Origin: a virus
Reading direction: 5' to 3' (one strand)
IMG/VR virus record: IMGVR_UViG_3300024344_000019
Span: 1 to 53,159 of that record
DNA length: 53,159 nt
The notes beneath the pieces are model-generated. The model ran no database searches, was not told where the DNA came from, and saw only the letters and a list, made by a program, of their open reading frames with translations. Positions within the stretch are counted from its first letter, which is position 1, and each line of letters begins with the position of its first letter. The position numbers and the translations under genes were made by a program. Of the stretch, positions 7,193 through 38,784 are shown piece by piece.

Positions 7193-7627
7193 TTAAACTA
7201 AATTCGCAAATACTTTGTAAGTGTTGTTGGGTTGTTTTTCCCAATTAAATTCTAGTTTTAAACCGCCTTCTTTTCTATGAGATATGCCATCACCGTTTTC
7301 AATATCACCATCACCAGATGTTGTATTGTCAGATGTTTTTCCATATCTTCCACCAAACTGAGAAACCTCTACTACTGATTTACCATTTTTACCTTCAACT
7401 TTAGGTATGGTGTAATTTAGACCAATAGTTGCCAGTTTCATCGCTAATTGGTGCATAGCAGCGTCTGGTTGTACATATTCTTGTTCAGCGATTGCACCTA
7501 CAAAAGCATTAACTTTTTGCAAAGATTCAGGATTAGCAACATCAAAAATAGCAACATTATCGTTCTCTACTGATTGATGAGCAAATCTATCTGTATATGC
7601 TTCGTTGTATTGTTTAAAGCTCTTCAT
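7193..7627 (-). CDS. Conserved phage protein with capsid-targeting-like N-terminus
   Basis: 144 aa starting MKSFKQYNEAYTD, one of several proteins here with an MKxFxxF/Y-type leader similar to T4 internal proteins. The remainder has an acidic helical middle (residues ~30-75) and a Gly/Ser-rich beta-type C-terminus (SQFGGRYGK ... GDGISHRKEGGLKLEF). I do not recognise a catalytic family. The 57-aa gene upstream overlaps its start by 14 nt. Confidence 0.65.
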   Translation of the reverse strand: MKSFKQYNEAYTDRFAHQSVENDNVAIFDVANPESLQKVNAFVGAIAEQEYVQPDAAMHQLAMKLATIGLNYTIPKVEGKNGKSVVEVSQFGGRYGKTSDNTTSGDGDIENGDGISHRKEGGLKLEFNWEKQPNNTYKVFANLV

Positions 7628-10044: not shown

Positions 10045-10052
10045 TATTTATC
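10045..10052 (-). promoter_or_regulatory. Late-type promoter box (GATAAATA)
   Basis: GATAAATA on the minus strand, 50 nt upstream of the ATG at 9994, leaving a short leader with an AAGGAG ribosome-binding site. No -35 box. Confidence 0.6.
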
Positions 10053-10578
10053 AAAAACCAATTCTCTTAAGCTGAGAAATCGTGTTTGATGTACTTGTAT
10101 GTTCAATACCTATACCCCCAGCAGCTCTAAATTGTTGAACATTCTTTGAATAATCATCAATTAAGATTGCAGGTTGTCGTTTAATCGCACTACCTTTCAT
10201 AGCAAAGTTCTTTTTTTCTCTACGCCTTACAATGTTTATCATTGAATTTTGCGTATATCCTACTTCTTTTCGTAACCATCTCATCTTTCCTGGTATACAA
10301 TTAGGATCTTCTATACTATATGCTGATAAAATATGAGGATTGTACTTTCTTAAATATGACCAAAGTTGTTTACCATCTCTAGTCCAAGGCATATTTGCCC
10401 AAAAGTTCTTTGTTTTTCTTATAGATTCCCAATCTTGTCCGTCTCGCAAACCAACCCAATTTTGACCAGTTGCTCTTTTAGCAGCAAGAATGAAATCACA
10501 TAACACTCCATCCATATCAACATAGATACGAGGCATATCGCCTTTCGCTTCTCTGTAAAATTCTTTATAATCTCTCAT
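10051..10578 (-). CDS. HAD-family 5'(3')-deoxyribonucleotidase-like enzyme
   Basis: 175 aa. HAD motif I is VDMDGVLCDF with D21 (nucleophile) and D23. The later ILIDDYSKNVQQFRAAGG is motif IV-like, with the two Asp that bind Mg. The N-terminal layout resembles NT5C-type nucleotidases, which dephosphorylate (deoxy)nucleoside monophosphates. The first 11 residues, MRDYKEFYREA, are a close match to the T4 capsid-targeting leader MKTYQEFIAEA, hinting that the enzyme is packaged. Alternative: a HAD phosphatase with another substrate. Confidence 0.8.
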   Translation of the reverse strand: MRDYKEFYREAKGDMPRIYVDMDGVLCDFILAAKRATGQNWVGLRDGQDWESIRKTKNFWANMPWTRDGKQLWSYLRKYNPHILSAYSIEDPNCIPGKMRWLRKEVGYTQNSMINIVRRREKKNFAMKGSAIKRQPAILIDDYSKNVQQFRAAGGIGIEHTSTSNTISQLKRIGF

Positions 10579-13278: not shown

Positions 13279-14198
13279 TATTTTAACCTCGGATAATACT
13301 TTCTAACTAAAGCATTTCTTTTTGAATAATCAGGATCAGTTATGTGACCTCTTTGTTTATGTCTTTTATCAATATCTTCCATATCTTTAATTTCTTGTGA
13401 TGTACCAAACTCTTTTGCTAACATAATAGCATTTAAAGAATGGTCGTTCTCATCTTCGTTTCTATCAAATTCTTTTTTAGTAAATCTTTCTTCTAAGTTT
13501 TCAGCAACAACTTTTGCACCATAGAAGTTTTGTAAGTCTGTACCGATAGCATTAAGTTCTGCACCTTTGCCATCAACTTTCATTACTAAACCTTTTGCGT
13601 CTATTGTAAAACCATATTTTGCTAAATCAGTAGAAGCCTTTGACATTGTAGCCATGTCTCTAAAAGTAACAGTCATTTTTTTGTACTCTTTGATTGTTTC
13701 TTCTTTTAGACCTTTTGGTTTCATAAGAGACATATAACCTGTTTGATTGCCATACATTTTTTTAAATGTAGCAGGTTCTTTTTTACTGATTACACTCATT
13801 ACATATTCTCTAGGTTCTGTATCAGCGTTGTAAATATGATTACCTAATGCTACATAATCTTTTTTTTTCAATAAATCTGCTGACTTTTTATACATTTGAT
13901 AGTCCATACTATCTCGTCTAGTATTTGTTCTATCAATTTCTCTAGCAGCAACACTTTCTTCTAATTCTTCGTTTGCTCTTTTTAATGCGTTTGCAACATC
14001 TGGATGACTTGCCAAACCTTTTGCAATCTTCTCAATAGCAGCATAAGCACCTGAATAGTTTCCTTGTTTATATCTAGGATCGTTTAGAACACCATATGCC
14101 ATTTTGATTTGTTGACTTGAAAAGCCTTTATCTTCATTGACAGGATCTCTATATGACCTTGCTTCTTCTAAAGCTTCTCTCATTGTTTTTCTGTACAT
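13278..14198 (-). CDS. Conserved phage protein, function unknown
   Basis: 306 aa. The N-terminus MYRKTMREALEEARS resembles that of the 213-aa protein and contains LEE, a possible prohead-protease site. Residues ~25-75 (FSSQQIKMAYGVLNDPRYKQ, then GNYSGAYAAIEKIAKGL) form a helical module that I recognise as recurring in marine phage proteins but cannot name. No catalytic motif is visible. TAATG overlap with the upstream 759-aa gene indicates coupled translation. Confidence 0.6.
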   Translation of the reverse strand: MYRKTMREALEEARSYRDPVNEDKGFSSQQIKMAYGVLNDPRYKQGNYSGAYAAIEKIAKGLASHPDVANALKRANEELEESVAAREIDRTNTRRDSMDYQMYKKSADLLKKKDYVALGNHIYNADTEPREYVMSVISKKEPATFKKMYGNQTGYMSLMKPKGLKEETIKEYKKMTVTFRDMATMSKASTDLAKYGFTIDAKGLVMKVDGKGAELNAIGTDLQNFYGAKVVAENLEERFTKKEFDRNEDENDHSLNAIMLAKEFGTSQEIKDMEDIDKRHKQRGHITDPDYSKRNALVRKYYPRLK

Positions 14199-16477
14199 TA
14201 TAGTTGTTCCTTCATTTTTTCAACTGCTTTGTCGAGTTCGACTTTCCAGTTTTCTTTAAATCTTTTCTTATATTTATCTATTGTTCCACCTTCATTCTTG
14301 AATTTTTGCAAGTCCTTGTCAGTTATTTTGTCTGTTGACCTTCTAAAATTCTGTATTGGTTGACCTGGTGTCATTTTCATTGTATGCTGAGCATACTCAT
14401 CTGTACCTATTTCGTAAGATTCGTCTGCTCTCATCTCTTGTTCTAGTCTATCTAATAGATTAATACTTCTTCTACCTTCTATTTTATCTTGATAATCTTC
14501 TTTTTTCATTTGTTTTGTCTTTTCTTTCATCTGGTTTATATACTTACGATATATTGCTGCCTCAGCAGTCTTACCCATTTCTCTTGCTCTCTGTTCCATT
14601 GCAACAGCAGCCTGAATTTTATGTGCGTGAGTTTTGCCAGAATTTTTAATTTTGTTTATACTTGCCTTTGCAGTTGCTACATCTTTAAATCCAAGACCTT
14701 GAATTGTGCCTTTTGGATTTTCATCTGTATATAAATCAGAATGTTTATCTGAACCTGCAGGTTGACCTTTTTTTCTAGGTATTCTTGGTTCTTCTTCTAA
14801 TGATTGTATATCATATAACCATGCCTTCTTAATAAGACCGTCACTCTCATATGAAACATAATTTGAGCCTCGTCTTACAATCATACCCATTGAACCGTCC
14901 ATGTGTTCAATTATATCACCAATATTAAATATTCTTTCTTGATGATATTCTTCTCTTAAATCGTTGTTTAAAAAGTTTGTAAAACTTTCTATACTTTCTC
15001 TTATACCCATGCCTTTTTTAACAGCATTAAATAATTCTTTTGTGTCTGAATCTGAAAGACCAGTTACACCTGTTTTAAAGTTTCTGTAATCATTGTTCTT
15101 TGCCATCTCTCTCATCTTTGAAGCTGACATTCCTGAAACACCTTCAGCATCTGGATCTCTTTCGCCAGAAGAAACTACTGTAACTTTTTTGTATTCATAA
15201 TCTTTGCCATTGTACTTATCAGCAAGAGATTGAAATTCTCGTATTCTATCACTACCTGCAACCATGATTACTTCACCATACATCTTATTATAGAACTTTA
15301 ATATCTCCATAAATGTTCTTTGATTACCACCTGCCGCCTGTATCTTATTTTGTGGGAACATCTTTTTCATAAACTTAACTTTTGTGTTTACATCTAATGG
15401 ATTTTTTCTTCTATCGGTTGAGGCGCTAGCATAAACAATGTGGTTAGCATTATTTTTTCTAGCTTGTGTAATCACTTCCTTCATAAGTTTAGCATGGCCT
15501 GTGGTAGGAGGGTTGAACCTACCAAAAGCAAAAATCAATTTGTTTGCCTTATCTAACGCCTCTCCGATTGCCCTCGTTTTACTTTGGGCAGATTCTACAT
15601 ATTTTAAAGAGTCTATCTCATCATCTGTAACCTTACCATCATCTAAAATCTTCTTACACTTTTTCAAAAAAGTTAAGTAGTGATATTTCTCTAACATTTT
15701 ATAAATTACATTTTTAGGTAATCTGTTTTTAATACTATAAGTTTTAATTTCATCTGGTGTCATATCTTTATCAAACGCAGCTCTTCTTTCAGCGTCAACT
15801 TCAGTACCGATGTCTGTTAAATCTTGTATATCTTTTTCTATTTCACCTAGTTTGTTACTAATTCTTTTTTCTAAATCTTTAATCTCACCAGGTTTTAATT
15901 CTGTTAATTCGTCATAGTCTATAATATCTCTTTTTAATTCACCTTTCAACATATCTATTTTGTCAACTTGTTTTTGAAAGTCTTTTAGATACAAGTTAGG
16001 ATTAAAATCAAATTCTTCTGGTCGTTTTTCAAATGATTGACCTTTAATATCAAATACAGCGTCTGCCTTTTTGTTTTGGTCATCATAAGTTTTTTTATCT
16101 GTAATAAAATAATAGTTAATAGGATGTTTTGTTCCTGGTATTAATTTACCTTGTATATTATCTGGATTACTAGACGCTAAATATTTCTTAGATAGTCTTA
16201 ATCTTTCTTCTTCTTGTTTTTCTTCTGGTACATCAAATAAAACATTGATATCTAAATCAGCGTCATTACGATATCTTTTTGTAAGTATAGAACCTATCAA
16301 ACTATAATCTAATATAGGATATTCTGATTCAAATTCTTTAAATTGTTCCGTGATTAATCTTAATACACTATCTTTAATTTTAGGATTATCTGTATCTTCA
16401 TCATCAAAAACACTAGGAGCATATGTGCGTCTAGGTATATCAATGATTGATTCTTTAAATAGTTTAAAACTTTTCAT
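14198..16477 (-). CDS. Two-domain nucleotidyltransferase (NTase + cytidylyltransferase-like)
   Basis: 759 aa. Starts MKSFKLFKESI (capsid-targeting-like). Residues ~45-85 look like a polymerase-beta-type minimal nucleotidyltransferase (SLIGSILTKRYRNDADLDIN: GS plus DxD). Residues ~310-480 look like a HxGH-type cytidylyl/adenylyltransferase: FAFGRFNPPTTGHAKLM, then SGMSASKMREMA, the equivalent of the ISAT motif. That fold transfers NMP groups in NAD and phospholipid synthesis. Residues ~595-660 (SDLYTDENPKGTIQGLGFKD ... HAHKIQAAVAMEQRARE) are a module found in other marine phage proteins. NMN adenylyltransferase activity is possible; the substrate is unknown. Confidence 0.75.
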   Translation of the reverse strand: MKSFKLFKESIIDIPRRTYAPSVFDDEDTDNPKIKDSVLRLITEQFKEFESEYPILDYSLIGSILTKRYRNDADLDINVLFDVPEEKQEEERLRLSKKYLASSNPDNIQGKLIPGTKHPINYYFITDKKTYDDQNKKADAVFDIKGQSFEKRPEEFDFNPNLYLKDFQKQVDKIDMLKGELKRDIIDYDELTELKPGEIKDLEKRISNKLGEIEKDIQDLTDIGTEVDAERRAAFDKDMTPDEIKTYSIKNRLPKNVIYKMLEKYHYLTFLKKCKKILDDGKVTDDEIDSLKYVESAQSKTRAIGEALDKANKLIFAFGRFNPPTTGHAKLMKEVITQARKNNANHIVYASASTDRRKNPLDVNTKVKFMKKMFPQNKIQAAGGNQRTFMEILKFYNKMYGEVIMVAGSDRIREFQSLADKYNGKDYEYKKVTVVSSGERDPDAEGVSGMSASKMREMAKNNDYRNFKTGVTGLSDSDTKELFNAVKKGMGIRESIESFTNFLNNDLREEYHQERIFNIGDIIEHMDGSMGMIVRRGSNYVSYESDGLIKKAWLYDIQSLEEEPRIPRKKGQPAGSDKHSDLYTDENPKGTIQGLGFKDVATAKASINKIKNSGKTHAHKIQAAVAMEQRAREMGKTAEAAIYRKYINQMKEKTKQMKKEDYQDKIEGRRSINLLDRLEQEMRADESYEIGTDEYAQHTMKMTPGQPIQNFRRSTDKITDKDLQKFKNEGGTIDKYKKRFKENWKVELDKAVEKMKEQL

Positions 16478-16734
16478 TCTCCCCCATTTCCATTACCATT
16501 AGTACCGTTACCATTTGAACCATTACCATTAGTACCATTGCCGTTTGTATTATTGTTTGTGTTATCATCTGATTGTTGATTGTCTTGTCCATTACCATTT
16601 CGACCACCAAAATAAGGATAATATCTAGTTACTCCAGTAGGCACACACACTTGTAATTTTTTATCAAACCTATATCCTTCAGGACATTTCTTTGTTTGTT
16701 GTGCAGCCGTAATAAAACTTCTAAATGAATCCAT
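16474..16734 (-). CDS. 86-aa protein with Cys pair and Asn-Gly repeats
   Basis: I choose the ATG at 16734, which overlaps the upstream stop as TAATG and has AAAAGG before it; a TTG 15 nt upstream is less likely. The protein starts MDSFRSFITAAQQTK (leader-like). It then has CPEGYRFDKKLQVCVPTG, two Cys likely forming a disulfide or small metal site, and ends in a 40-residue Asn/Gly/Thr repeat. The combination suggests a structural or packaged protein with a flexible tail. Family not recognised. Confidence 0.65.
   Translation of the reverse strand: MDSFRSFITAAQQTKKCPEGYRFDKKLQVCVPTGVTRYYPYFGGRNGNGQDNQQSDDNTNNNTNGNGTNGNGSNGNGTNGNGNGGE
16484..16555 (-). repeat. Asn-Gly coding tandem repeat
   Basis: Plus-strand units of ACCATTA/ACCGTTA-type (about 15-18 nt) encode (T/S)NGNG repeats at the C-terminus of the 86-aa protein. 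Confidence 0.65.
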
Positions 16735-17972
16735 TATCCTTTTACCCAATCTTTTGCCATATTAAAGTTTGCTTTACTAAACTCTAATCTGTCAACTAGT
16801 TTAACAGCACCGCCTTTTTGAATTGCTACATATCCTTCAGGATTTGTAACTTTGTATCCATTACTTGTTCTCAAAAATGAACCGATACTTTGTATAGTAT
16901 TTAATCTTCTTAACAATACAGCTTTTGCTGATTGAAATGTAATATAAGTTGCAATCGCAAAATATAAACCGTCTCTATTTGCTCTTAATATTTTCATACC
17001 TGCTTCAAGTATTTCTTCATACTTTTGTTTTGCAGCTGGTGTTTTTTTACTATCTATTTCTTTTTTAATTCTGCCTCTAAAATAAACTTCAAAATTATTT
17101 GCTAACTTTGATGTATTTGTAATTGCTGTGCCTTGTCTTATATAAACATTAAAAAATGTTTTCATTTGAACACCTAGTGATAAAGGTCCTGTATCTTTTT
17201 TTAGTTTATCAACAAACGCACCTGCCTTATAAGCAGAACCCTCTGCCATTCTAATAATATTATCAAATGCTTTTTCTTCAGCAGGACTAAAAGCTGCACC
17301 ATCAGCTCTTTTATAAGTTGCGTCATCAAAGAATACATTTTTACTTTTTTTCAAACCTCTAACATTAGCACCAAATCCTGCCTTTAGTGTTGCCATTGTT
17401 TTGCCTGAATAAGATGTATGAAATATAATACCTATTTTTGCACTATTAACTTCTTTATATATGTTTCTACCAAGACCTAGAAAACCTGAACTTACGACAG
17501 GTACTGCATATGTAATAGTGTTAGGGGTAAATATGATTGATTTCTTACCTGCAACATTAGCAGTCTTTTTATCGCCACTTGCAAAGAGTAAATCGCCTTG
17601 TAAAATTCCTGAGATGCCTAGAGATGGTAAATATTTTAAACACTCTTTTAATTTATCAGCAAGAGCACCACCATGATTTCTACTGATATCAGCATTTGTA
17701 TAGTTTATTTTAGGTGTTTTATTAAAGATAGATTTAGTACCGACAAAGAACTTTCCGTTCTCAGGATTGATACCACAAAAGACCGCAGGTGCACCGTCCC
17801 ATTTTACTGAAACTGTGGATCCACCTGACCCTCCTTGTAACATCTGTTTGATAGACTTTAAAAACTCTATTGCTGTTTTAGCTCCACGACTTCCATTATT
17901 AATTATTTCGTCTTCCAGATGTTCAAGATGTGTGTTCTTATCTTCGATAAGATAATCTTGAAATTTCTGCAT
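16734..17972 (-). CDS. Ligase-like covalent nucleotidyltransferase (KWDG), possible DUF6267 member
   Basis: 412 aa. SVKWDGAPAVF (K57) looks like motif I (KxDG) of DNA/RNA ligases and mRNA-capping enzymes. GKFFVGTKS (~73-81) and ILQGDLLF (~123-130) sit where motifs III/IIIa would be; PEGYVAI (~378-384) looks like motif IV, and AVKLVDR (K391) like motif V. The N-terminus MQKFQDYLIED matches the capsid-targeting pattern and contains L-I-E, a possible prohead-protease site. A perfect early promoter and a GGAGAG ribosome-binding site precede it. I infer a divergent nucleotide-transfer enzyme; the substrate is unknown and ligation activity is unproven. Confidence 0.6.
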   Translation of the reverse strand: MQKFQDYLIEDKNTHLEHLEDEIINNGSRGAKTAIEFLKSIKQMLQGGSGGSTVSVKWDGAPAVFCGINPENGKFFVGTKSIFNKTPKINYTNADISRNHGGALADKLKECLKYLPSLGISGILQGDLLFASGDKKTANVAGKKSIIFTPNTITYAVPVVSSGFLGLGRNIYKEVNSAKIGIIFHTSYSGKTMATLKAGFGANVRGLKKSKNVFFDDATYKRADGAAFSPAEEKAFDNIIRMAEGSAYKAGAFVDKLKKDTGPLSLGVQMKTFFNVYIRQGTAITNTSKLANNFEVYFRGRIKKEIDSKKTPAAKQKYEEILEAGMKILRANRDGLYFAIATYITFQSAKAVLLRRLNTIQSIGSFLRTSNGYKVTNPEGYVAIQKGGAVKLVDRLEFSKANFNMAKDWVKG

Positions 17973-17994: not shown

Positions 17995-18023
17995 ATTATA
18001 ACACTATTATTTATAATAGTCAA
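17995..18023 (-). promoter_or_regulatory. Early promoter of the ligase-like gene
   Basis: TTGACT (18023-18018), 17-nt spacer, TATAAT (18000-17995). GC precedes the -35 box. The leader of ~15 nt carries GGAGAG, unlike the leaderless early promoters elsewhere. Confidence 0.88.
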
Positions 18024-19162: not shown

Positions 19163-19930
19163 TTATCTAGGTATTGCTTTGCATTTAAACACTAGTGAAA
19201 CTCTGAATTTATCACTCTCTACTGCTCTTGCAACATGGGGTATTCTAGCGTCAAACAATACAACACGCCCTGCCCTTGGCCAATATGATTTTACAATGTT
19301 CATATTAGGGTCACCATTAAGACCATAAGGTGTATTGATTGCCATTGCTTTCATTTCATCATCTAGATTAGGTGTCCAAAACTCTATCGTACCACCATCT
19401 TCTGGTCGCCAGTCAGGTGTTAGATATACAATGACTGTATATTGGTCGCCAGTCCATCCATCAATATGAATACCGCCAGATTGACCTGCGTGATGTCCGT
19501 TAAGATAATGTCTTAATAGTTTTGCACCAGGATTTACTTTATCCCAAATCTCTTGTACCCAATCTTGTTCAATTTCATAATCAACTTCTTTAGTATCACT
19601 ACCACCTAAATGAATATGTTTATAACCAGGTGTCTTTGCTTCGTTCTTCATTTTTTCAGACGAATACCAACCGTCTTGCCAATCCATATTCATTACAATA
19701 TCATAGTATTTTTTTATATCATCTTCGGGTATTGTGCCATCAGACGCTTGTATGATTTTATGATAGTCTCCGCCTTTTAAAGCGTCAGCCTTTATTGTAT
19801 AAACTTTATCAGTTTTTGTATCTGTAATTTGAAAGTTCTCAGGATCTTCTGGATTGCCTATTGACTCAATATCAAACTTTTTTGCTTGTGAAGTAAAATC
19901 TTTTTCAGGATCAATTATCTTGGTGGTCAT
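19163..19930 (-). CDS. 2OG-Fe(II) oxygenase
   Basis: 255 aa from the ATG at 19930; a TTG seven codons upstream lies in a Lys run and is less likely. The C-terminal half is a prolyl-4-hydroxylase-like domain. GGIHIDGWTGDQYTVIVYL gives the HxD metal pair, DGGTIEFWTP a conserved strand, IPHVARAV the distal His, and KFRVSLVF the Arg that binds 2-oxoglutarate. Such enzymes hydroxylate proteins, nucleobases or small molecules; the substrate is unknown. It overlaps the 110-aa gene by 20 nt. Confidence 0.85.
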   Translation of the reverse strand: MTTKIIDPEKDFTSQAKKFDIESIGNPEDPENFQITDTKTDKVYTIKADALKGGDYHKIIQASDGTIPEDDIKKYYDIVMNMDWQDGWYSSEKMKNEAKTPGYKHIHLGGSDTKEVDYEIEQDWVQEIWDKVNPGAKLLRHYLNGHHAGQSGGIHIDGWTGDQYTVIVYLTPDWRPEDGGTIEFWTPNLDDEMKAMAINTPYGLNGDPNMNIVKSYWPRAGRVVLFDARIPHVARAVESDKFRVSLVFKCKAIPR

Positions 19931-20243
19931 TTTTTTCTTCTTCTTCTTCAAATAGTATCATGGTAATTAAACTATAAATTGCCATGTCCATTAAAGTGTC
20001 TTTGATACTTTCTTCTTTAAATTTAAATTCACCTTTTTTGATGAAGTTACTTATACGAGCATACTTATCGCCCATACGAACAACGGAACCTTGCCAAGCA
20101 GGTATGCCTGATAATTCTGACAATCTAAAATTAGCAAAGATATCTTCATTTGCACCATAATCATGTCGTTTTTTATCGTGTAATGTTTTAATTACATCTA
20201 TGATTTCATAAAATCTTTTGCTTTGTTTGTTTATATCGTCCAT
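19911..20243 (-). CDS. DUF1599-like nucleotide-modification-associated protein
   Basis: 110 aa. The pattern KKRHDYGANEDIFANFRLSE, then RMGDKYARISNFI and ESIKDTLMDMAIYSL, resembles the DUF1599 / nucleotide-modification-associated domain family, small helical proteins distantly like MazG. The enzyme activity is not established. The acidic tail overlaps the oxygenase start. Linkage to an oxygenase is compatible with nucleotide modification but does not prove it. Confidence 0.7.
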   Translation of the reverse strand: MDDINKQSKRFYEIIDVIKTLHDKKRHDYGANEDIFANFRLSELSGIPAWQGSVVRMGDKYARISNFIKKGEFKFKEESIKDTLMDMAIYSLITMILFEEEEEKNDHQDN

Positions 20244-20482
20244 TATATTTTTCCTAGTGTTAAAAATTTAACTACTCCTCCTTGGTTCTCCCATTGTTTA
20301 TGTTTATTTTGATGGTCGCAAACTGCCTGTGCCTCATCTTCAAACTCAGACTCAGTTATGATACTGCCCGTTGGTCGTTCAATACATAACCAACGGACCT
20401 TACCTTGCCTCTTAACGAGTTTTACTTCATAAGAAATCTTATGTTTCTTTACTCTAGGTTTTTTTGCGACCTTTCTACCCAT
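20243..20482 (-). CDS. 79-aa basic phage protein, function unknown
   Basis: Start placed at ATG 20482, which lies just past the stop of the 90-aa gene; a longer frame exists but would run through that gene. Begins MGRKVAKKPRVKKHKISYEV, very basic, followed by a small beta-rich part (KVRWLCIERPTGSIITESEF, then EDEAQAVCDHQNKH). It could bind nucleic acid. The stop overlaps the next start (TAATG). Confidence 0.6.
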   Translation of the reverse strand: MGRKVAKKPRVKKHKISYEVKLVKRQGKVRWLCIERPTGSIITESEFEDEAQAVCDHQNKHKQWENQGGVVKFLTLGKI

Positions 20483-25044: not shown

Positions 25045-27539
25045 TAGAAGAAGTTATCCAGGGTTGCTTGTTTTTCAAAATTCCAGTTGATTGCATTGAC
25101 AATAAATCGTAATGGTTCTAAAAATGACTTGTCAAACTGCTCATCAAAATCAATATATTGGTGTAGATTAAATTCTTTTGGTAAGTGTGTTGGGAAAGAT
25201 ATCACCTTTTCTCTTAATGGATTAGGTTCTTTTAAAACAATAAATTTAATCTTATCGCCTTCTTGTATTACTTCATACTTTCTTAATTTGTTTTTCTTTA
25301 GTAAATTATTATACAGTAGAGCACCTTTCACATGAATTGGTGTTGACTTTTGATATATGTCTGTTGATGAAGAATACTTTTTAAGATTATTACATGAACG
25401 AGGATAAGCAATTTCTTCTGGTCGTAACTTTTTGAAATGTGTTCTAAACTCATCAATAAATTGTATCAAAGCATTTTCATCTTTATTCATAATTACTTTC
25501 AATGCCTCTTTAATCTTGATACGACAAGGGGCAGGAGTTGAACTCTTAACTGCTTCAATACCCATAATCTTTAATTTAGGTTCTTTCAAATCAACACCTT
25601 CTTCATTATAAACATTTAAGATATATCTTTTCTTAGCAGTCCAGATACCTTTGTTTGCAATTACTTCTCGTTTCATAATCATTTTTTGGTCAAATGCTTT
25701 TACATATTTAGCAAGATTATCATAACTCTTATCAATTGCAATTTGTAATTTTTCTTCACAAAATTTATCTAGAACTTTTACAATCTTTCTTGTATCAGAT
25801 TTATCTTTAAATATTTTATCTACAACTGCACCAAGTTTTACATAGATAGAATCAGTATCAGAAGCCACAACATAAACTACGTTTTTAGTTTTAAGTAAAT
25901 TATTTAAATAATTATTTACGTCTCTTTCAATCCATCTAATCGCAAGTTGACCTGCCTTTGTAATACCTTCAGCGTGTCTTACATCAAAATATTTAAAGTA
26001 TTGATTGCCGATAGCACCATAGGCACTATTCAAAGCAATCTTTCTTGCAAGTTGAATATTATGGTTAGCAGCGATATCATTTAATAATCTTTTATCACCA
26101 GTTTCTTGATACAAAGATTTTGCTTCTAACATTTTCTTTTTATATACAACTCGTTCTTTATAAAGTTTCTCCATCAACTTAGGAAGAAAACCTCGTTTGT
26201 CTGTACGAAACTGAGCACCGTTTGGTGTTATGGTACAACCATCTAAATGAGATAAATCAGATTCTTGATTTAACATTTTTTCAACACTTACAGAATTAGG
26301 TTCAAACCCGACCATTGTTTCAGGAGATATATTATACTGCATAATCAAATGAGGATATAGACTATTCAAATCAAAACTACAAATCCAATCGTGAAAACCT
26401 ACAACTGGATCTTTTACATATGCACCTTCATAACCACCAGAATATTCGTTTTCATTTACAGCAGGACAAACAAGTTTATTCTCTTTTAGATAATTAAATA
26501 TAATTGTATCCCACATACGAACTTGACCAAATACATCTTGATAATTAACTTTTGCTTCATAGGCCATAGTTAAGTGTAAAGCAATCAACTGCATTTTATC
26601 TTCTAACTTATCAACTATCTCAACGTCTTGAATATTATACTCTACAAATAATTGATAGTCGTTAGAATAAAACTCTTTGAAAGTATCATATGGATTCTCT
26701 AATTTATTTTCACCTAATTCTACTTCACCGATATAATCTAGTTTATAACTTTCTTGTCTAACAAATGTATGTTTACGATATAAGTCAAGATAATCTAAAA
26801 CTGAAACACCTAAAATATCATAATAGTTTTGTTCTTTGTTAAAACCTTTAGCAGTTATTCTTGCACTACTTTGATTTACGATACCCCAAGGACTAAACTG
26901 ATTTAAATATTCATCGCCCATAAGATATTTAAATCGATTCATTAAATAAGGAATATCAAAGAACTTAACATTCCAACCAGTTACAACATCTGGATTATAA
27001 GCAGTCCAGAACTTTGTAAACTTTTGTATTAAATCTCTTTCAGTAGAACATTTAAAATATTTTACATCATCACGGTCATTGACAAAGTTGCCACATCCAA
27101 AAACAATAATACTTTTTCTTGCATGGTCTTTTACAGTAATACAGATTAAAGGTTCTTCAGCCTTATCTACATCAGGAAAACCATTTTCACTTTCACACTC
27201 AATGTCAATTGTGATTAATCTTATTTGTTTAATATCCCAATCAACTTTGCCTGGGAACTCATCTGCGATATATGGATATTGAAATCTTGTATTACCAAAA
27301 TATTCAAAGTTAGTTACATCTTTGTATTCGTCAATCCATTTTCTTGCCTCGAACATACTATCATGTTCAATCTTTGCTACATTACGACCATCTAATGTTT
27401 TATATCCTGTTTCTTTTTGAACAGGTGTAAACAAAGACGGTTTGTAATTTACTCTAAACTTTTTGTGGCTGCCATCATGGTTAACTCCTCTTACTAAGAG
27501 TCGACCTTTATATGGCAGCACACTAGTATAAAATTTCAC
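25044..27539 (-). CDS. 43: Family B DNA polymerase, T4 gp43-like
   Basis: 831 aa (T4: 898). Proofreading ExoI is LITIDIECE with D112 and E114, the same numbering as T4. The polymerase A motif is DLNSLYPHLI; the B motif is KIALNSAYGAIGN; the C motif is VVASDTDSIYV, with the catalytic Asp pair. The protein ends QATLDNFF, a match to the QxxLxxFF clamp-binding box, expected to hold gp45. The start codon is GTG, overlapping the upstream stop as TAGTG. No intein is visible. Confidence 0.96.
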   Translation of the reverse strand: MKFYTSVLPYKGRLLVRGVNHDGSHKKFRVNYKPSLFTPVQKETGYKTLDGRNVAKIEHDSMFEARKWIDEYKDVTNFEYFGNTRFQYPYIADEFPGKVDWDIKQIRLITIDIECESENGFPDVDKAEEPLICITVKDHARKSIIVFGCGNFVNDRDDVKYFKCSTERDLIQKFTKFWTAYNPDVVTGWNVKFFDIPYLMNRFKYLMGDEYLNQFSPWGIVNQSSARITAKGFNKEQNYYDILGVSVLDYLDLYRKHTFVRQESYKLDYIGEVELGENKLENPYDTFKEFYSNDYQLFVEYNIQDVEIVDKLEDKMQLIALHLTMAYEAKVNYQDVFGQVRMWDTIIFNYLKENKLVCPAVNENEYSGGYEGAYVKDPVVGFHDWICSFDLNSLYPHLIMQYNISPETMVGFEPNSVSVEKMLNQESDLSHLDGCTITPNGAQFRTDKRGFLPKLMEKLYKERVVYKKKMLEAKSLYQETGDKRLLNDIAANHNIQLARKIALNSAYGAIGNQYFKYFDVRHAEGITKAGQLAIRWIERDVNNYLNNLLKTKNVVYVVASDTDSIYVKLGAVVDKIFKDKSDTRKIVKVLDKFCEEKLQIAIDKSYDNLAKYVKAFDQKMIMKREVIANKGIWTAKKRYILNVYNEEGVDLKEPKLKIMGIEAVKSSTPAPCRIKIKEALKVIMNKDENALIQFIDEFRTHFKKLRPEEIAYPRSCNNLKKYSSSTDIYQKSTPIHVKGALLYNNLLKKNKLRKYEVIQEGDKIKFIVLKEPNPLREKVISFPTHLPKEFNLHQYIDFDEQFDKSFLEPLRFIVNAINWNFEKQATLDNFF

Positions 27540-27769
27540 TATATTTGTGTATTATTAAAATGTTTATTTAACGAATGTATTTTTTCTTCGGCAGTTGATA
27601 TTATTTCTAACTGTTTATCCATTTCACTAATGTGTTGTGGATGTTCGCCGATACCTACTGAATTATCAAAATATACAATTAAAGTAGCATACGCTTCTGC
27701 TATCTGTGCTTCGTATCTTTTTGACAATGCCTTGAATAACGGATTGTCTGCTTGGTGATTTTTAGCCAT
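27539..27769 (-). CDS. 76-aa conserved phage protein upstream of gp43
   Basis: Helical small protein; its core DNSVGIGEHPQHISEMDKQL is a pattern I have seen in T4-like marine phages near gp43. Function unknown. It has its own early promoter with a good AAGGAG ribosome-binding site and is translationally linked to gp43. Confidence 0.65.
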   Translation of the reverse strand: MAKNHQADNPLFKALSKRYEAQIAEAYATLIVYFDNSVGIGEHPQHISEMDKQLEIISTAEEKIHSLNKHFNNTQI

Positions 27770-27826: not shown

Positions 27827-29206
27827 TTAATCTAAACTATATTTTGTCGTAACGACATATTTTCTGTCTGGATTTACCATAACATTTACTCTACTCATAA
27901 ACTCTCGGTCAAATAGAATTGGTGTTCTATCTTCTCTATCATCTAAAGTAAATTCTGTTTCATACATAGTACCTAGAAACTCCACATCTAGTTTAATGAC
28001 ATATCTGGTTTCGTCATAGTCTCTTAAACCGCCTACTGATATTTCTTCTTGTCGAATGATATCACTTGTGATAGTTTTATCTAGTAAAGACCATGTAATC
28101 TTTTTACCATTAACTTTCATTTTATCAGCATGAATAACTGACATGCCTGAATTACCTGTATCAAACTTAGCGATAATTTCACCAAATGGTTTGATAGTTA
28201 CAATTTCTTTGTAACCACACTCACTTGGTACTTTGACCCAATTCTTTTTCTCAGCAAAAAATTCTATAATTTCTTTACTAATATTTTGACCACTTGCTTC
28301 TTCCATACCTTCAGTACCAGGAGATGAGTTTACCTCAATCACAAATGGAGGCTCTTTTTCTCTATTCTTACTTGGTATAAAGTCAACAGCAGTCCATAGT
28401 CCATTAACTGCTTTTGCAGCCTTTAAACTTTCTTCTATTTCTAATTCTGTTAGTTCAATTTTTTCTGGTTTAGAACCTTGCGATACGTTACTTCTAAAGT
28501 CACCTTCAATAACAGGTCGCTTCATTGTAGCAAGTATCTTGCCGCCTAAGACTAATACTCTAACATCATAATCTGTTTTAATATATTCTTGTAAAAGTAA
28601 ATCTGTATCTTCGTCTTGTTTGTAAATTAATTGTACAATACTGTCTAATGCTTTTTCTGATTCAATAAACAATACACCAACACCTTTTGACCCCCTTAAA
28701 GTTTTCATAATCACAGGCATTTGTGTATCTAGTTTATCAAATGCTAGTGCTGATTTTTCTGGATCGTTTATTAAAGTAGTTTTAGGTTGTCGAATACCAT
28801 AATCAGAAAGTCTTAGTGCTGTTCTATATTTGTCTGTACAAATATTGATTGTTTGCCTACTATTGATGACACAAACACTATGTTTTTCTAATGAAGATAT
28901 AATATCCATCCAACTATCTTTTCTGACAACTGAACCTCTTATGATTGCGATTGTGTCTTTACCTGAAACTTCAAAACCTTTTTCATCTTCTTTATTATGT
29001 AATCTAAAAATACCATCTTCGTATGAAGTATAACCACCAGTTAGTTTATACAGATAATGTTTCCATCCTAATTTCTCTGCTTCTTCTTTGAGTCTATCAG
29101 CAGTATGAAAGGTCTTTGCCTTTTCAGGCTCATCTGTTATAATCAGTAGTTTATACTTTTCAGTTTTAGCTTCTGTTATAAAGTCTTTAAACTTCGGTGC
29201 CTTCAT
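27827..29206 (-). CDS. RimK-type ATP-grasp ligase fused to RimB-type retropepsin-like protease
   Basis: 459 aa. Starts MKAPKFKDFITEAKTEKY (capsid-targeting-like). Residues ~100-330 are an ATP-grasp ligase of the RimK type: VIMKTLRGSKGVGVLFI, LLQEYIKTDYDVRVLVLGGK, then VIEVNSSPGTEGMEEASG. RimK adds glutamates to ribosomal protein bS6. Residues ~335-459 look like the RimB/ATP-dependent zinc-protease family: GEIIAKFDTGNSGMSVIHA with the D-T-G catalytic signature at ~347-349, then DRTPILFDREFM. RimB is the partner that trims glutamates. Both activities in one chain is unusual. Overlaps regA by 20 nt. Confidence 0.85.
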   Translation of the reverse strand: MKAPKFKDFITEAKTEKYKLLIITDEPEKAKTFHTADRLKEEAEKLGWKHYLYKLTGGYTSYEDGIFRLHNKEDEKGFEVSGKDTIAIIRGSVVRKDSWMDIISSLEKHSVCVINSRQTINICTDKYRTALRLSDYGIRQPKTTLINDPEKSALAFDKLDTQMPVIMKTLRGSKGVGVLFIESEKALDSIVQLIYKQDEDTDLLLQEYIKTDYDVRVLVLGGKILATMKRPVIEGDFRSNVSQGSKPEKIELTELEIEESLKAAKAVNGLWTAVDFIPSKNREKEPPFVIEVNSSPGTEGMEEASGQNISKEIIEFFAEKKNWVKVPSECGYKEIVTIKPFGEIIAKFDTGNSGMSVIHADKMKVNGKKITWSLLDKTITSDIIRQEEISVGGLRDYDETRYVIKLDVEFLGTMYETEFTLDDREDRTPILFDREFMSRVNVMVNPDRKYVVTTKYSLD

Positions 29207-29618
29207 CTTCGATTTTTTTACCTATGTTATATTTCGCTTGTAAGTCCCAATCATTCTTTTCTTTAAATGATAAAACTTTAATTTGTGATAGAGGTGCTTT
29301 TTTCTCAGCAACTGTAGCATTAATTATTGCAATTAATCCCCAATCTGCCAATAACTGAGCAATCGTATTTCTTCTTTCAATATCATTGTCGGTTAAGTTT
29401 GCTTCTTTACCATCTAACGCAAATAGTTCCTTAAAATGCGTTATGAAATATCTACCTTGTTTGTGTAGTATATGACACGATTGAAATAATTTTTTATCTT
29501 TTCTAGAGGCAACACCAATTCTAGTTAGTGTTTCACGAACCTTTAAAAAATCGTCTGGTTCTTTTAATTGTACTTCCAGCATTTTCTCTGGATGCCAACT
29601 GTTATCTAATTCATTCAT
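29187..29618 (-). CDS. regA: RegA translational repressor
   Basis: 143 aa (T4 RegA: 122). Strong similarity by eye to RegA: DFLKVRETLTRIGVASRKDK, LFQSCHILHKQGRYFITHFK, RRNTIAQLLADWGLI. Binds the start-codon region of early mRNAs and blocks ribosome access. As in T4, it lies directly behind gp44-gp62. The start overlaps gp62 by 4 nt. Confidence 0.93.
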   Translation of the reverse strand: MNELDNSWHPEKMLEVQLKEPDDFLKVRETLTRIGVASRKDKKLFQSCHILHKQGRYFITHFKELFALDGKEANLTDNDIERRNTIAQLLADWGLIAIINATVAEKKAPLSQIKVLSFKEKNDWDLQAKYNIGKKIEDEGTEV

Positions 29619-32826: not shown

Positions 32827-32834
32827 TATTTATA
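32827..32834 (-). promoter_or_regulatory. Late-type promoter box (TATAAATA)
   Basis: TATAAATA on the minus strand directly after the hsp20 terminator; the leader to the 342-aa gene is ~65 nt. Confidence 0.5.
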
Positions 32835-34690: not shown

Positions 34691-35902
34691 TTAATAACTA
34701 GGGTTATCTTCCTCACTATCATCGGAATCTTGTTCTTCTTCTAGAACTGGATTACCCCAAGTGGTAACATCTTCGCCACCATCAACTTTGGTATATAAAT
34801 CCATAAATGATGTTTTGGTATCAACATCAAATCTATTAGTACACATTTCAATTGCCTTCATCTTGTTTTTAAAGATTGTATAGGCTTCTACAATGTGAAC
34901 CAATCGTCTAGTAGAAATTATCTCATCTACGCCGCCCTCATAAAAGGTCTTTCTGATAATGTCTGCCCAAGTAATTAAGTTTAGGGAAAACTTCTCATCA
35001 TCTTTTTTAGTAAGACCTTTTTCGGACATTACATTGTTTAAGATTTTACTCTCAATTTTATTTGTTGGATATGATTGTTCAACAGTAATCGGAAATCTCT
35101 CAAGGAATGCCTCGTTAAGAATATTAGTACCGATAAACTTACCATCTTCGGATCCTTGACCTTTAGTATTGGCAGTGGCAATCACATTAAACCCTGGTGC
35201 AGGTTTAATAAACTTGTTAATCTTTTTAAGGAAGACACCATTACCTTCTAAGATAGGTTGTAAACACATAATCTTATTAGACGCAAGGTCAATCTCATCA
35301 AGAAGAAGTATAGCACCTCTTTCCATTGCCTCGATTACTGGACCATTCTGCCAAACAGTTTGACCCTCTTGCAATCTATAACCACCGAGTAAATCATCTT
35401 CATCGGTCTCGATTGTAATATTAACTCTAATACATTCTCTTTTTGCCTGAGCACAAGCCTGTGATACATTCATTGTCTTACCGTTACCAGACAAGCCAGT
35501 AATAAAGATAGGATAGAATTGTTTACTTGTAATGATTGATTTAATATCTTTAAAGTAACCCCAAGGAACAAAAACATTGTCTTTGGCAGGAACGATATTA
35601 CCAGTTAAACTAGAAACGATAAATGCAGCCTTATTTACTGTATCAACAGTAGGTGCGGTTTCATTTTTAGGTAATTCGGATTGTATTTCTTCTTTTACTT
35701 TTGAAGAAATATCGTTGCCTTCAATCGGTAAAGAGTAAACTCCTCTAGCAACTTTGTATTGGTCTTGTTTTAACCAACTTGGATTTTTGATTTTGCCACT
35801 TTTAACAAAATCATTAATCTCACTTCTTGTTAAATCAGTTTTTTTGTAGTGTTTATATAACAACTCTACCTGACCTAACTGGTCTTGATTCAAATTATTC
35901 AT
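34691..35902 (-). CDS. cobS: MoxR-type AAA+ ATPase (CobS/CbbQ-like)
   Basis: 403 aa. Walker A is GLSGNGKT (136-143); Walker B is AILLLDEIDLAS; sensor I lies in FNVIATANTKG; the arginine finger is near AFLERFPI. Cyanophage genes of this type are called cobS after the cobaltochelatase subunit, but the same fold (MoxR, CbbQ, NorQ) serves VWA-protein partners generally. Residues ~18-60 form a small domain (TRSEINDFVKSGKIKNPSWL, then VARGVYSLP) repeated in the adjacent 81-aa protein. Its VWA partner is two genes upstream. Confidence 0.88.
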   Translation of the reverse strand: MNNLNQDQLGQVELLYKHYKKTDLTRSEINDFVKSGKIKNPSWLKQDQYKVARGVYSLPIEGNDISSKVKEEIQSELPKNETAPTVDTVNKAAFIVSSLTGNIVPAKDNVFVPWGYFKDIKSIITSKQFYPIFITGLSGNGKTMNVSQACAQAKRECIRVNITIETDEDDLLGGYRLQEGQTVWQNGPVIEAMERGAILLLDEIDLASNKIMCLQPILEGNGVFLKKINKFIKPAPGFNVIATANTKGQGSEDGKFIGTNILNEAFLERFPITVEQSYPTNKIESKILNNVMSEKGLTKKDDEKFSLNLITWADIIRKTFYEGGVDEIISTRRLVHIVEAYTIFKNKMKAIEMCTNRFDVDTKTSFMDLYTKVDGGEDVTTWGNPVLEEEQDSDDSEEDNPSY

Positions 35903-36354: not shown

Positions 36355-38784
36355 TTAAGCGACTTGCGAGATAAATTTATTTAAGACTACTCTACTATCT
36401 TTATTTTCTTTTAAAGTAGAAGTGAATAATCTTTTTATCTCACTCTTTTTGGCGTTTTCAGATGGTGTCGCCATTTGACCATCTGATACTTGCATATTAC
36501 CTCCAGCAAGGAGATAAAATTCATCATAAGCAGAATTATGTTTAACAACTAAACATTTGTTTTTTCTAAATTCTGCCATTACTTTTTTTCTATCAAATAC
36601 TTTTTCTGATTTATCATAAGAATACTGTGGAAAAAATCTATCCATTGTCCATCTATCAATCTTTTTACCACTTGCAACATAGAAACCTAATACTTTAGTG
36701 CCAGTTCTATTTCTCAAAGCGTCTAGTAAATGGTCTGTCATTTCTCTACGACCTGAATTAGTATATTCTTTTTTAGTTACGGTATCTCTTAATACGACAT
36801 TAGAACCATAGTCGGTACTACCAATATAAAATCCGTCTCTTTTATTTAAATAATTATGTTCTTTTTCATGTTCACTAGGATTAATAAAAACTTTTCTATC
36901 ATTACCATCACTTGCACCATCAGTTAAAAAAATTGTATTCATTTTATCAATAGCATATCTTTTTCTGAAAGCAGTAACCATTGGCATCGCAGCCATAATA
37001 GTATCGTTTAATGGAGTAGAACACAAACCATAACCAGATGGTTCATATGGTAAGTTTGAAACATAATCTTGTTGTTTTTGATAATCAGCAAATTGTTCAG
37101 GATCTAAATTATAGACTCTTCTACCATAACGATAATATGTATTATCATTTTTTTCAGCAAGTAAGAATAAGTTAATCATGCCTTTTTCATATTCTTTAGC
37201 ATTCATTCTAGAGGATATAAAGTTTAATAAAGACAATCTCTCATCAACTGTAATATCGCCGTCTTGATATCTAGGCGATTTTCTACCTTCAGGTGTCTCA
37301 TTTTCATTATCCCAATATCTATGTCTACCTGCCCTATCGTCATTACTAAAAGCATATACTTCAAAAGGTATATTTACTTTTTGACAAAACATTGTTAAAT
37401 TCATCAACTGGTGAATAGTAGGAGTAATCTTGTCATGCATACTACCTGACCAGTCTATAAACATCATCATACCGTGGTTCTTACCATCAGGTGTGATTGC
37501 CATTCTTTTAAAGATATCATCATTATATTTGTAACTATGTAATTTAAGTGGGTCAATAACACCAGACTTATCTTGTTTAGTTCTAGAATAAGCGGCAGCA
37601 GCCTTTTTCATTTCATATTCTTTAACCATATAACTAACTTTTTTAGATTGGTCTTTAGTAAATTTTCTGTATTTAGAAATCAATGTACTAATAGCTTCTT
37701 GACGACTACTATCCAATGTTTCTTTATTGTAAGGTTTTCTAAATACTCTATCAAAATCTGATAATACAGTTTTATAGTCAACAATATAATCATTCACATT
37801 TTTGTAATTATGAATATTAATGTATTCATTGTTTTTAGATTCTGGATCTAATAAATTTTCTTTTTTATCTTCCCAAGATTGGTCCGTCTCAGCAGATACT
37901 TCTTCTATTTCTTCTTCAACAGGTTTAGCAGGTTTTGATTCTTCGCCTTTTAATTTTGTTTCTGATTGTTGACCACTTGAAGGTTTATCAGAAACGTCTG
38001 TATCTGATTTTTGTTCTTCAGCGTCTTTGGTTTTTTCTTCGCCTTTATCATCAGAATTTTTAGAACCACTTTTTTCTTCTTCATCTTTTTCATCTGATGG
38101 ATCAGAAATCATATCGCCGTCTTGGTCTAAATCATTTTCATCAAGGTCATCAAAATCATGGTCATCAAAACCATAAGTTTCCATTTCTTCTTCTTTTTCT
38201 TCTTGTTCTTTTTTACAATACTTTGCCAACTCATCAGCAAGGTCAACAACTTGTTTAAAGGTTTCTAATTTTTCAATTCTCTTAACAACATCATTCTCAT
38301 AACTATCGGTAAAAGATAAAGGTGATTCTACATGAGACGATTTAAAATGAATATTTAATCTATCAATAAGAAGCATATCATCAAGGTTTTTATCTTTAGT
38401 ACCAAAGAAGTTGTTATTGATAAGGTCTCTATAACCTCTAATAAATGATTGTGATAAACCAGGATATTTTCTTTTGATTAGTTTTTCAATACGAGCATCC
38501 TCAAGAACATTTAAAAATGACTTAGGTATTTTTCTCTTTACAATTGAATCTTCCCAACCAGAGTGTGGGGTAAATAATGCATGGCCAACTTCATGTGCAA
38601 TAAGTAAATCTGTAATATCCTCATTCATGTCTTTCCATATAGGTAAAACAAGTAATCTAGATTTTACATCAAAATAAGCAGTCTTAACTTTTTTGTGTTC
38701 TACTGATATATTTTCAGTAGCAAGTAATTTTGCAAGATACGATTTGGCGTTGTTATTGATTTTGTTTGTTTTCAAGTTTTTCAT
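36355..38784 (-). CDS. VWA-domain protein with HExxH motif (CobT-like / DUF2201-like)
   Basis: 809 aa. Residues 62-74 contain LIAHEVGHALFTPH: an HExxH zinc-peptidase signature (H64, E65, H68). A long acidic Asp/Glu/Ser-rich linker (~200-310) follows, as in CobT. The VWA domain begins at ~440 with MMMFIDWSGSMHD (MIDAS DxSxS), and IFLTDGASDG gives a later MIDAS Asp. With the ATPase at 34691 it forms a MoxR-VWA pair. It has been read as cobaltochelatase CobT in related phages, but the HExxH motif suggests a peptidase. Two tandem promoters lie upstream. Confidence 0.82.
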   Translation of the reverse strand: MKNLKTNKINNNAKSYLAKLLATENISVEHKKVKTAYFDVKSRLLVLPIWKDMNEDITDLLIAHEVGHALFTPHSGWEDSIVKRKIPKSFLNVLEDARIEKLIKRKYPGLSQSFIRGYRDLINNNFFGTKDKNLDDMLLIDRLNIHFKSSHVESPLSFTDSYENDVVKRIEKLETFKQVVDLADELAKYCKKEQEEKEEEMETYGFDDHDFDDLDENDLDQDGDMISDPSDEKDEEEKSGSKNSDDKGEEKTKDAEEQKSDTDVSDKPSSGQQSETKLKGEESKPAKPVEEEIEEVSAETDQSWEDKKENLLDPESKNNEYINIHNYKNVNDYIVDYKTVLSDFDRVFRKPYNKETLDSSRQEAISTLISKYRKFTKDQSKKVSYMVKEYEMKKAAAAYSRTKQDKSGVIDPLKLHSYKYNDDIFKRMAITPDGKNHGMMMFIDWSGSMHDKITPTIHQLMNLTMFCQKVNIPFEVYAFSNDDRAGRHRYWDNENETPEGRKSPRYQDGDITVDERLSLLNFISSRMNAKEYEKGMINLFLLAEKNDNTYYRYGRRVYNLDPEQFADYQKQQDYVSNLPYEPSGYGLCSTPLNDTIMAAMPMVTAFRKRYAIDKMNTIFLTDGASDGNDRKVFINPSEHEKEHNYLNKRDGFYIGSTDYGSNVVLRDTVTKKEYTNSGRREMTDHLLDALRNRTGTKVLGFYVASGKKIDRWTMDRFFPQYSYDKSEKVFDRKKVMAEFRKNKCLVVKHNSAYDEFYLLAGGNMQVSDGQMATPSENAKKSEIKRLFTSTLKENKDSRVVLNKFISQVA

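What the first reader, a model, noticed from the sequence alone, without database searches (positions are those of the whole stretch)
27827..29206. RimK-type ligase and RimB-type protease fused in one phage protein
The N-terminal part has RimK ATP-grasp motifs; the C-terminal part has the FDTG retropepsin-like signature of RimB. In bacteria these are separate proteins that add and trim glutamates on ribosomal protein bS6. A fusion would give a writer and eraser in one chain, next to RegA, a translational repressor, and in a phage that also encodes bS21. The N-terminus also looks capsid-targeted.
Basis: partly seen in the sequence, partly recalled or inferred. Interest (0 to 1): 0.78.

Follow-up and report, generated by a model that had tools for sequence, protein, structure and literature searches.

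The report
Phage glutamate ligase–protease fusion, likely packaged
An abundant marine phage carries one protein that joins an enzyme predicted to add amino acids (probably glutamate) to a target with a protease predicted to trim poly-glutamate, behind a short tag like the one T4-type phages use to pack proteins into their heads, so it may be injected into the host cell; the fusion itself was reported in 2008, but the protease identity and the packing tag are new here.

Summary
There is a RimK-family ATP-grasp (residues 19–320) followed by a RimB-type PF05618 domain with F-D-T-G-N-S (331–453). The catalytic Asp349 is kept in 80/80 full-length homologues and the RimB half is under strong purifying selection.

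Two first-reader points need correction. (1) The fusion is not new: RimBK hybrids (protease first) occur in bacteria and one is active, and the same marine-phage order, RimK–DUF785 next to regA, was reported in 2008. (2) bS6 as target is not shown: the protein fails the bS6-ligase equivalog cut-off, and an arginine that contacts poly-glutamate in RimK is replaced.

New here: residues lining the poly-glutamate channel of RimB-type proteases are kept, and the N-terminus (MKAPKFKDFITE|A) matches the T4 capsid-targeting peptide (MKTYQEFIAE|A). It is conserved (dN/dS 0.17) beside a linker with no detectable constraint (~1.0), also in a sister clade lacking RimB. A distant homologue in phage YerA41 is annotated as a virion protein.

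Best reading: a virion-packaged, injected ligase/poly-glutamate protease acting on an unidentified host protein.

The parts
27827..29206 (-). RimK–RimB fusion gene, 459 aa; the first 20 nt overlap the 3' end of regA
   Evidence: open frame on the minus strand, 80 IMG/VR homologues
29171..29206 (-). residues 1-12, MKAPKFKDFITE|A: T4-type capsid-targeting sequence with gp21-type site I-x-E|A (codons 1-6 overlap regA, codons 7-12 essentially do not)
   Evidence: same layout as T4 IPII/IPIII MKTYQEFIAE|A; F9, I10 and E12 conserved; dN/dS 0.17 against ~1.0 for residues 13-18
28247..29152 (-). residues 19-320: RimK-family ATP-grasp amino-acid ligase
   Evidence: PF08443 6e-39; TIGR00768 173 bits, above its 143.4 cut-off; K126, K168, R216, R230, D275, E291, N293 invariant
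27848..28216 (-). residues 331-453: RimB/PF05618 retropepsin-like aspartic protease
   Evidence: PF05618 8e-8; profile match to solved chain 9g58_A (code named in PMC12239564, the paper with the RloA crystal structures) 2.7e-5; dN/dS 0.13
28160..28162 (-). codon of catalytic Asp349 (FDTGNS)
   Evidence: 80/80 homologues
29187..29618 (-). regA translational repressor, immediately upstream
   Evidence: phrog_242 6e-62; immediately upstream in 71/71 fusion loci with room
27539..27769 (-). 76-aa conserved small protein between the fusion and DNA polymerase B
   Evidence: found in 53/80 fusion loci; no Pfam match

Best explanation
It is a bifunctional protein-modifying enzyme of marine T4-type phages, most likely packed in the virion. 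The N-terminal 12 residues take the new protein into the prohead core and are cut off by the phage prohead protease after Glu12. The mature enzyme is then injected with the DNA. Its RimK-family ATP-grasp half adds amino acids, most likely glutamates, to a target. Its RimB-type retropepsin half, working as a dimer, trims poly-glutamate made by the first half and may stimulate it, as RimB does with RimK. Shown here by sequence: both domains, intact catalytic residues, conserved poly-glutamate-channel residues, and a conserved capsid-targeting motif. Inferred: packaging, injection, glutamate as donor, dimer formation. Unknown: the target (host bS6 is one candidate among several).
For: Domains. 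Catalytic Asp349 80/80; selection on the RimB half as strong as on the ligase half (dN/dS 0.13 and 0.16). The RloA residues that bind poly-Glu (K46, R114, R137, conserved in RimB; PMC12239564) match phage K347 (two before the Asp), R401 and R424, with the same 23-residue spacing between the two arginines (R401 and R424 invariant; Lys at Asp-2 in 81/82). Capsid-targeting motif: T4 IPII/IPIII; L/I-x-E site rule; targeting at T4 residues 4 and 7, processing at 8 and 10, which line up with F6, F9, I10 and E12; present in both the fusion and RimK-only clades. In the relative Mosig the same type of site occurs in the major capsid protein (FLSE|A, residues 49-53), and a prohead core scaffold/protease protein is annotated. 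The distant homologue YerA41_066 is annotated 'structural protein' in a phage whose paper reports 63 virion proteins by LC-MS/MS, some thought to be injected.
Against: No virion proteomics exists for this phage group in what I could read. YerA41 shows no T4-type motif, and its Table S2 could not be opened (I rely on the GenBank label). No exact T4-type late promoter TATAAATA lies closer upstream of the gene than position 32827, about 3.6 kb away, and the gene sits among replication genes, so late expression is not indicated. One glutamate-contacting RimK residue (R8) is Asp25 here, and H215/R216 are S242/Q243 as in archaeal ligases, so donor or acceptor may differ. The fold was not modelled.
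Confidence: 0.55

Rival explanations
1. Same enzyme, but made and used inside the infected cell rather than packaged. It acts on ribosomal protein bS6 (or another translation component) alongside RegA and phage bS21 to retune translation.
For: RegA is the immediate upstream gene in 71/71 fusion loci; bS21 is in the window; RimK/RimB act on bS6 in Pseudomonas; the gene sits in the replication cluster with no exact late promoter nearby.
Against: Does not explain the conserved N-terminal motif followed by an unconstrained linker. The bS6-ligase equivalog model fails (102 of 331 bits).
Confidence: 0.25
2. The ligase half acts on a small molecule or a non-glutamate donor (like MptN, CofF, LysX or glutathione synthetase), and the protease half removes or regulates that product.
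For: The best specific curated model after the RimK family is MptN (143 bits, below its 350 cut-off); an archaeal-like N[IV]SQG motif replaces N[LI]HRG; R8 is lost.
Against: The RimB half keeps the three poly-Glu-binding positions, which would be hard to explain without a poly-acidic product; R64, R189 and N262 equivalents are kept.
Confidence: 0.15
3. The RimB half is a regulatory, non-proteolytic domain.
For: A sister clade lost it or never had it; RimB is reported to be bifunctional, also stimulating RimK (PMC11957791).
Against: Asp349, Thr350 and Gly351 are invariant in 80/80.
Confidence: 0.1

Closest known systems
RimK–DUF785 proteins of uncultured marine phages (Monier et al. 2008, PMC2530865)
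   Same: same domain order, same neighbours (regA, DNA polymerase), same marine T4-type phages: this window is a member of that set
   Different: in 2008 the C-terminal domain had no known function and no capsid-targeting peptide was noted in the passages I read
Bacterial RimBK hybrid (Desulfotalea psychrophila DP2392; PMC11957791)
   Same: ligase and RimB protease in one chain
   Different: opposite order (RimB first); no capsid-targeting peptide in the bacterial hybrid read here (L095)
Pseudomonas RimK + RimB
   Same: both catalytic sets present
   Different: separate proteins there; here RimK R8 and H215/R216 positions are changed
T4 internal proteins IPII/IPIII and Alt
   Same: N-terminal peptide like that of IPII/IPIII (F/Y-x-x-F-I-x-E|A), predicted cut by prohead protease; Alt is the known injected protein-modifying enzyme
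   Different: cargo is a ligase–protease; packaging not shown
Yersinia phage YerA41_066
   Same: RimK–RimB order, 35% identity, FDTGNS kept, annotated as virion protein
   Different: no T4-type motif, no adjacent regA annotated
Cyanophage 'ribosomal protein S6 glutaminyl transferase' (S-RIM8, S-CAM8 etc.)
   Same: phage RimK-like ATP-grasp
   Different: separate lineage (100/100 support), about 292-296 aa, no RimB, no capsid-targeting motif in the N-termini read

Membership tests
RimK family (TIGR00768) | score above curated cut-off over the full model | tested here: met
   172.8 bits against 143.4, residues 19-315
RimK family | ATP-grasp nucleotide/Mg residues | tested here: met
   K126, K168, R216, R230, D275, E291, N293 in 80/80
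bS6--L-glutamate ligase (NF007764) | equivalog cut-off 331 bits | tested here: not met
   101.8 bits
bS6--L-glutamate ligase | poly-Glu contacts R8, R64, R189, N262 of Pseudomonas RimK | tested here: inconclusive
   R64, R189 and N262 equivalents kept (R90, R216, N293); R8 is Asp25
RimB / PF05618 | Pfam gathering score 27 bits | tested here: met
   32.7 bits
RimB / retropepsin-like | hydrophobic-Asp-Thr/Ser-Gly catalytic motif | tested here: met
   DTG in 80/80
RimB / retropepsin-like | basic residues for poly-Glu (K46, R114, R137 of RloA) | tested here: met
   K347, R401, R424; YerA41 lacks the Lys
RimB / retropepsin-like | retropepsin fold and dimer | not testable with these tools
bacterial RimBK hybrid | RimB domain at the N-terminus of RimK | tested here: not met
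   order is RimK then RimB, opposite in L095
T4-type capsid-targeted internal protein | N-terminal peptide with L/I-x-E cleavage site and aromatic targeting residues | tested here: met
   79/80 fusion homologues and 54/61 RimK-only homologues
T4-type capsid-targeted internal protein | presence in the virion, N-terminus cut | not testable with these tools
   needs virion mass spectrometry; indirect support from YerA41 annotation

The most novel reading that the evidence does not exclude
Marine T4-type phages, including relatives infecting the abundant Pelagibacter group, pack a writer-eraser enzyme in the head and inject it, so that host proteins (possibly the ribosome) are polyglutamylated and trimmed from the first minutes of infection. 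This would be a protein-glutamylation counterpart of the ADP-ribosylating Alt protein of T4.
Probability: 0.4. Interest if true: 0.8.

Novelty: new variant of a known kind. Interest (0 to 1): 0.55.

Why it matters
T4 injects Alt, which ADP-ribosylates host RNA polymerase; no injected enzyme that glutamylates host proteins turned up in my searches. The gene is widespread in marine phage contigs (144 hits in one scan), a cultured phage (Mosig) carries it, and the prediction can be checked by mass spectrometry of purified virions. It also gives the 2008 'DUF785' domain of these phages a likely activity.

Tried and rejected
A search with the YerA41 protein in viral contigs gave no relatives. The genome-contig scan gave one phage contig inside an alphaproteobacterial MAG and archaeal or other ATP-grasp ligases, no bacterial ligase-first fusion. 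Host test: bS6 tails and rim genes in 28 unnamed small alphaproteobacterial genomes; AT-rich ones lack RimB and the readable tails do not end in Glu-Glu, but I could not show they are Pelagibacter, so this is weak. Idea that a phage protein carries an encoded poly-Glu tract for RimB: no run of 6 or more Glu in the window or Mosig (only a 5-Glu run in the window ORF at about 19914-20267), so a post-translational poly-Glu is the likelier protease substrate. Known anti-phage defence protein: no PADLOC match. Capsid motif as chance: rejected; 0/1688 interior windows, and among 471 other ORFs in the same loci the 14 matches were 9 RimK proteins missed by my filter and 5 clamp-loader gp44 frames. 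The first 6 codons overlap regA, so conservation of residues 1-6 alone would not count; F9, I10 and E12 lie outside the overlap.

Full report
What is there. The reported interval holds one intact gene on the minus strand, 29206 to 27827, 459 aa. Pfam places a RimK ATP-grasp at 124-316 (6e-39) and the PF05618 'Zn_protease' (RimB) domain at 331-453 (8e-8, above its gathering score). The full RimK-family model TIGR00768 starts at residue 19 and passes its cut-off; the bS6-ligase equivalog does not. A profile of 11 homologues finds solved RimK structures and 9g58_A, a PF05618-type chain whose code appears in the RloA retropepsin paper PMC12239564, at 2.7e-5 over 340-453.

Is it real and conserved. 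One scan found 144 relatives in viral contigs; the best 80 were kept and the full-length ones carry the fusion. The Asp of FDTG is kept in 80/80 full-length sequences, as are the ATP-grasp residues. dN/dS is 0.16 for the ligase, 0.13 for the protease, 0.17 for residues 1-12 and about 1.0 for residues 13-18. So both halves and the N-terminal peptide are under selection, while the short linker behind the peptide shows no detectable constraint. RegA is immediately upstream in 71/71 loci with room.

Protease half. The three basic positions that hold poly-glutamate in RloA and are shared with RimB (K46, R114, R137; PMC12239564) are K347, R401 and R424 here, with the same distance between the arginines. 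With the catalytic Asp this predicts a poly-glutamate endopeptidase. In RimB a D31E change abolishes activity (PMC11957791).

Ligase half. Of the residues that touch the poly-glutamate chain in Pseudomonas RimK (PMC10092738), the R64, R189 and N262 equivalents are kept (R90, R216, N293), but R8 is Asp25 and the NLHRG loop reads NVSQG as in archaeal relatives. A ligase is well supported; glutamate as donor is likely but not shown; bS6 as acceptor is open.

N-terminal peptide. T4 IPII and IPIII begin MKTYQEFIAE|A. The first 10 residues suffice for targeting, with residues 4 and 7 needed for targeting and 8 and 10 for cutting (PMC9026906); gp21 cuts after L/I-x-E. The window protein begins MKAPKFKDFITE|A. 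The motif occurs in 79/80 fusion homologues (all but YerA41) and 54/61 of a RimK-only sister group found with the Melnitz protein, and in 0/1688 interior windows. The first 20 nt overlap regA, so residues 1-6 are doubly constrained, but F9, I10 and E12 are not in the overlap. Mosig's major capsid protein carries a matching FLSE|A site (residues 49-53), and its genome is annotated with a prohead core scaffold/protease protein. In YerA41 the homologue is labelled 'structural protein', in a phage with 63 virion proteins found by mass spectrometry. Against packaging: no exact T4-type late promoter close upstream, and no direct virion data for this group.

History of the fusion. A tree of the ligase domain puts YerA41 (fusion) outside a group made of the marine fusions and the RimK-only clade, 98/95 support (YerA41 is a long branch). 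The simplest reading is that the ligase–protease order is old in phages and RimB was lost once in the Melnitz-like clade; two separate gains are not excluded. Cyanophage 'S6 glutaminyl transferases' form a separate lineage.

What was known. Monier et al. 2008 (PMC2530865) reported phage rimK beside regA in marine contigs, several with PF05618 at the C-terminal side, and noted the same order in Halobacteria and the reverse in Synechococcus. RimBK hybrids of bacteria, protease first, were described in 2025 and one is active (PMC11957791). I found no paper in the library joining a phage to RimB as a retropepsin or to a capsid-targeting peptide on this protein; the library is incomplete.

Limits. 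Host genomes could not be named, so the bS6 tail of the actual host was not tested. The virion status of YerA41_066 rests on its GenBank label.

Verdict. The finding is a real member of a published but little-noticed phage fusion. The added value is a likely activity for its second half and good sequence evidence that it is a packaged, injected enzyme. The bS6 story should be treated as one candidate target.

Noticed in passing
window 16734-17972 (-): A DUF6267 protein (PF19782, 1.4e-123) begins MQKFQDYLIED, with the Pfam domain starting at residue 13, and has TATAAATA about 36 nt upstream (18008-18015): a second protein with a capsid-targeting-like N-terminus.
   Followed up: partly
window 7193-7627, 10051-10578, 14198-16477 (-): Three more proteins begin MKSFKQYNEA, MRDYKEFYREAK and MKSFKLFKES; the second is a deoxyribonucleotidase-like protein, the third a cytidylyltransferase-like protein. 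They may be further packaged enzymes.
   Followed up: no
window 8779, 18008, 19129, 32827, 33361, 33623, 52724: All seven exact TATAAATA sites lie on the minus (coding) strand, most of them just upstream of genes, which fits T4-type late promoters, although the total number is not above chance.
   Followed up: no
window 36355-38784 and 34691-35902 (-): An 809-aa protein with HEVGHALF (metalloprotease-like) and a possible VWA-like region (DWSGSMHD) lies close to a MoxR-like AAA ATPase and bS21; the big protein has no Pfam match.
   Followed up: no
L200 2683-3342 (LR756504.1): A 636-kb uncultured phage encodes a stand-alone RimB-like protein with IDSGA, next to a phosphoenolpyruvate-carboxykinase-like gene.
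   Followed up: no
L088 (NHEU02000038.1): An alphaproteobacterial MAG (TMED93) contains a contig of this phage family, so it is probably contaminated.
   Followed up: partly
L084 82-1131 (Melnitz) and related loci L132-L146: RimK-only homologues keep the capsid-targeting-like motif although RimB is absent, and many start with TTG.
   Followed up: yes
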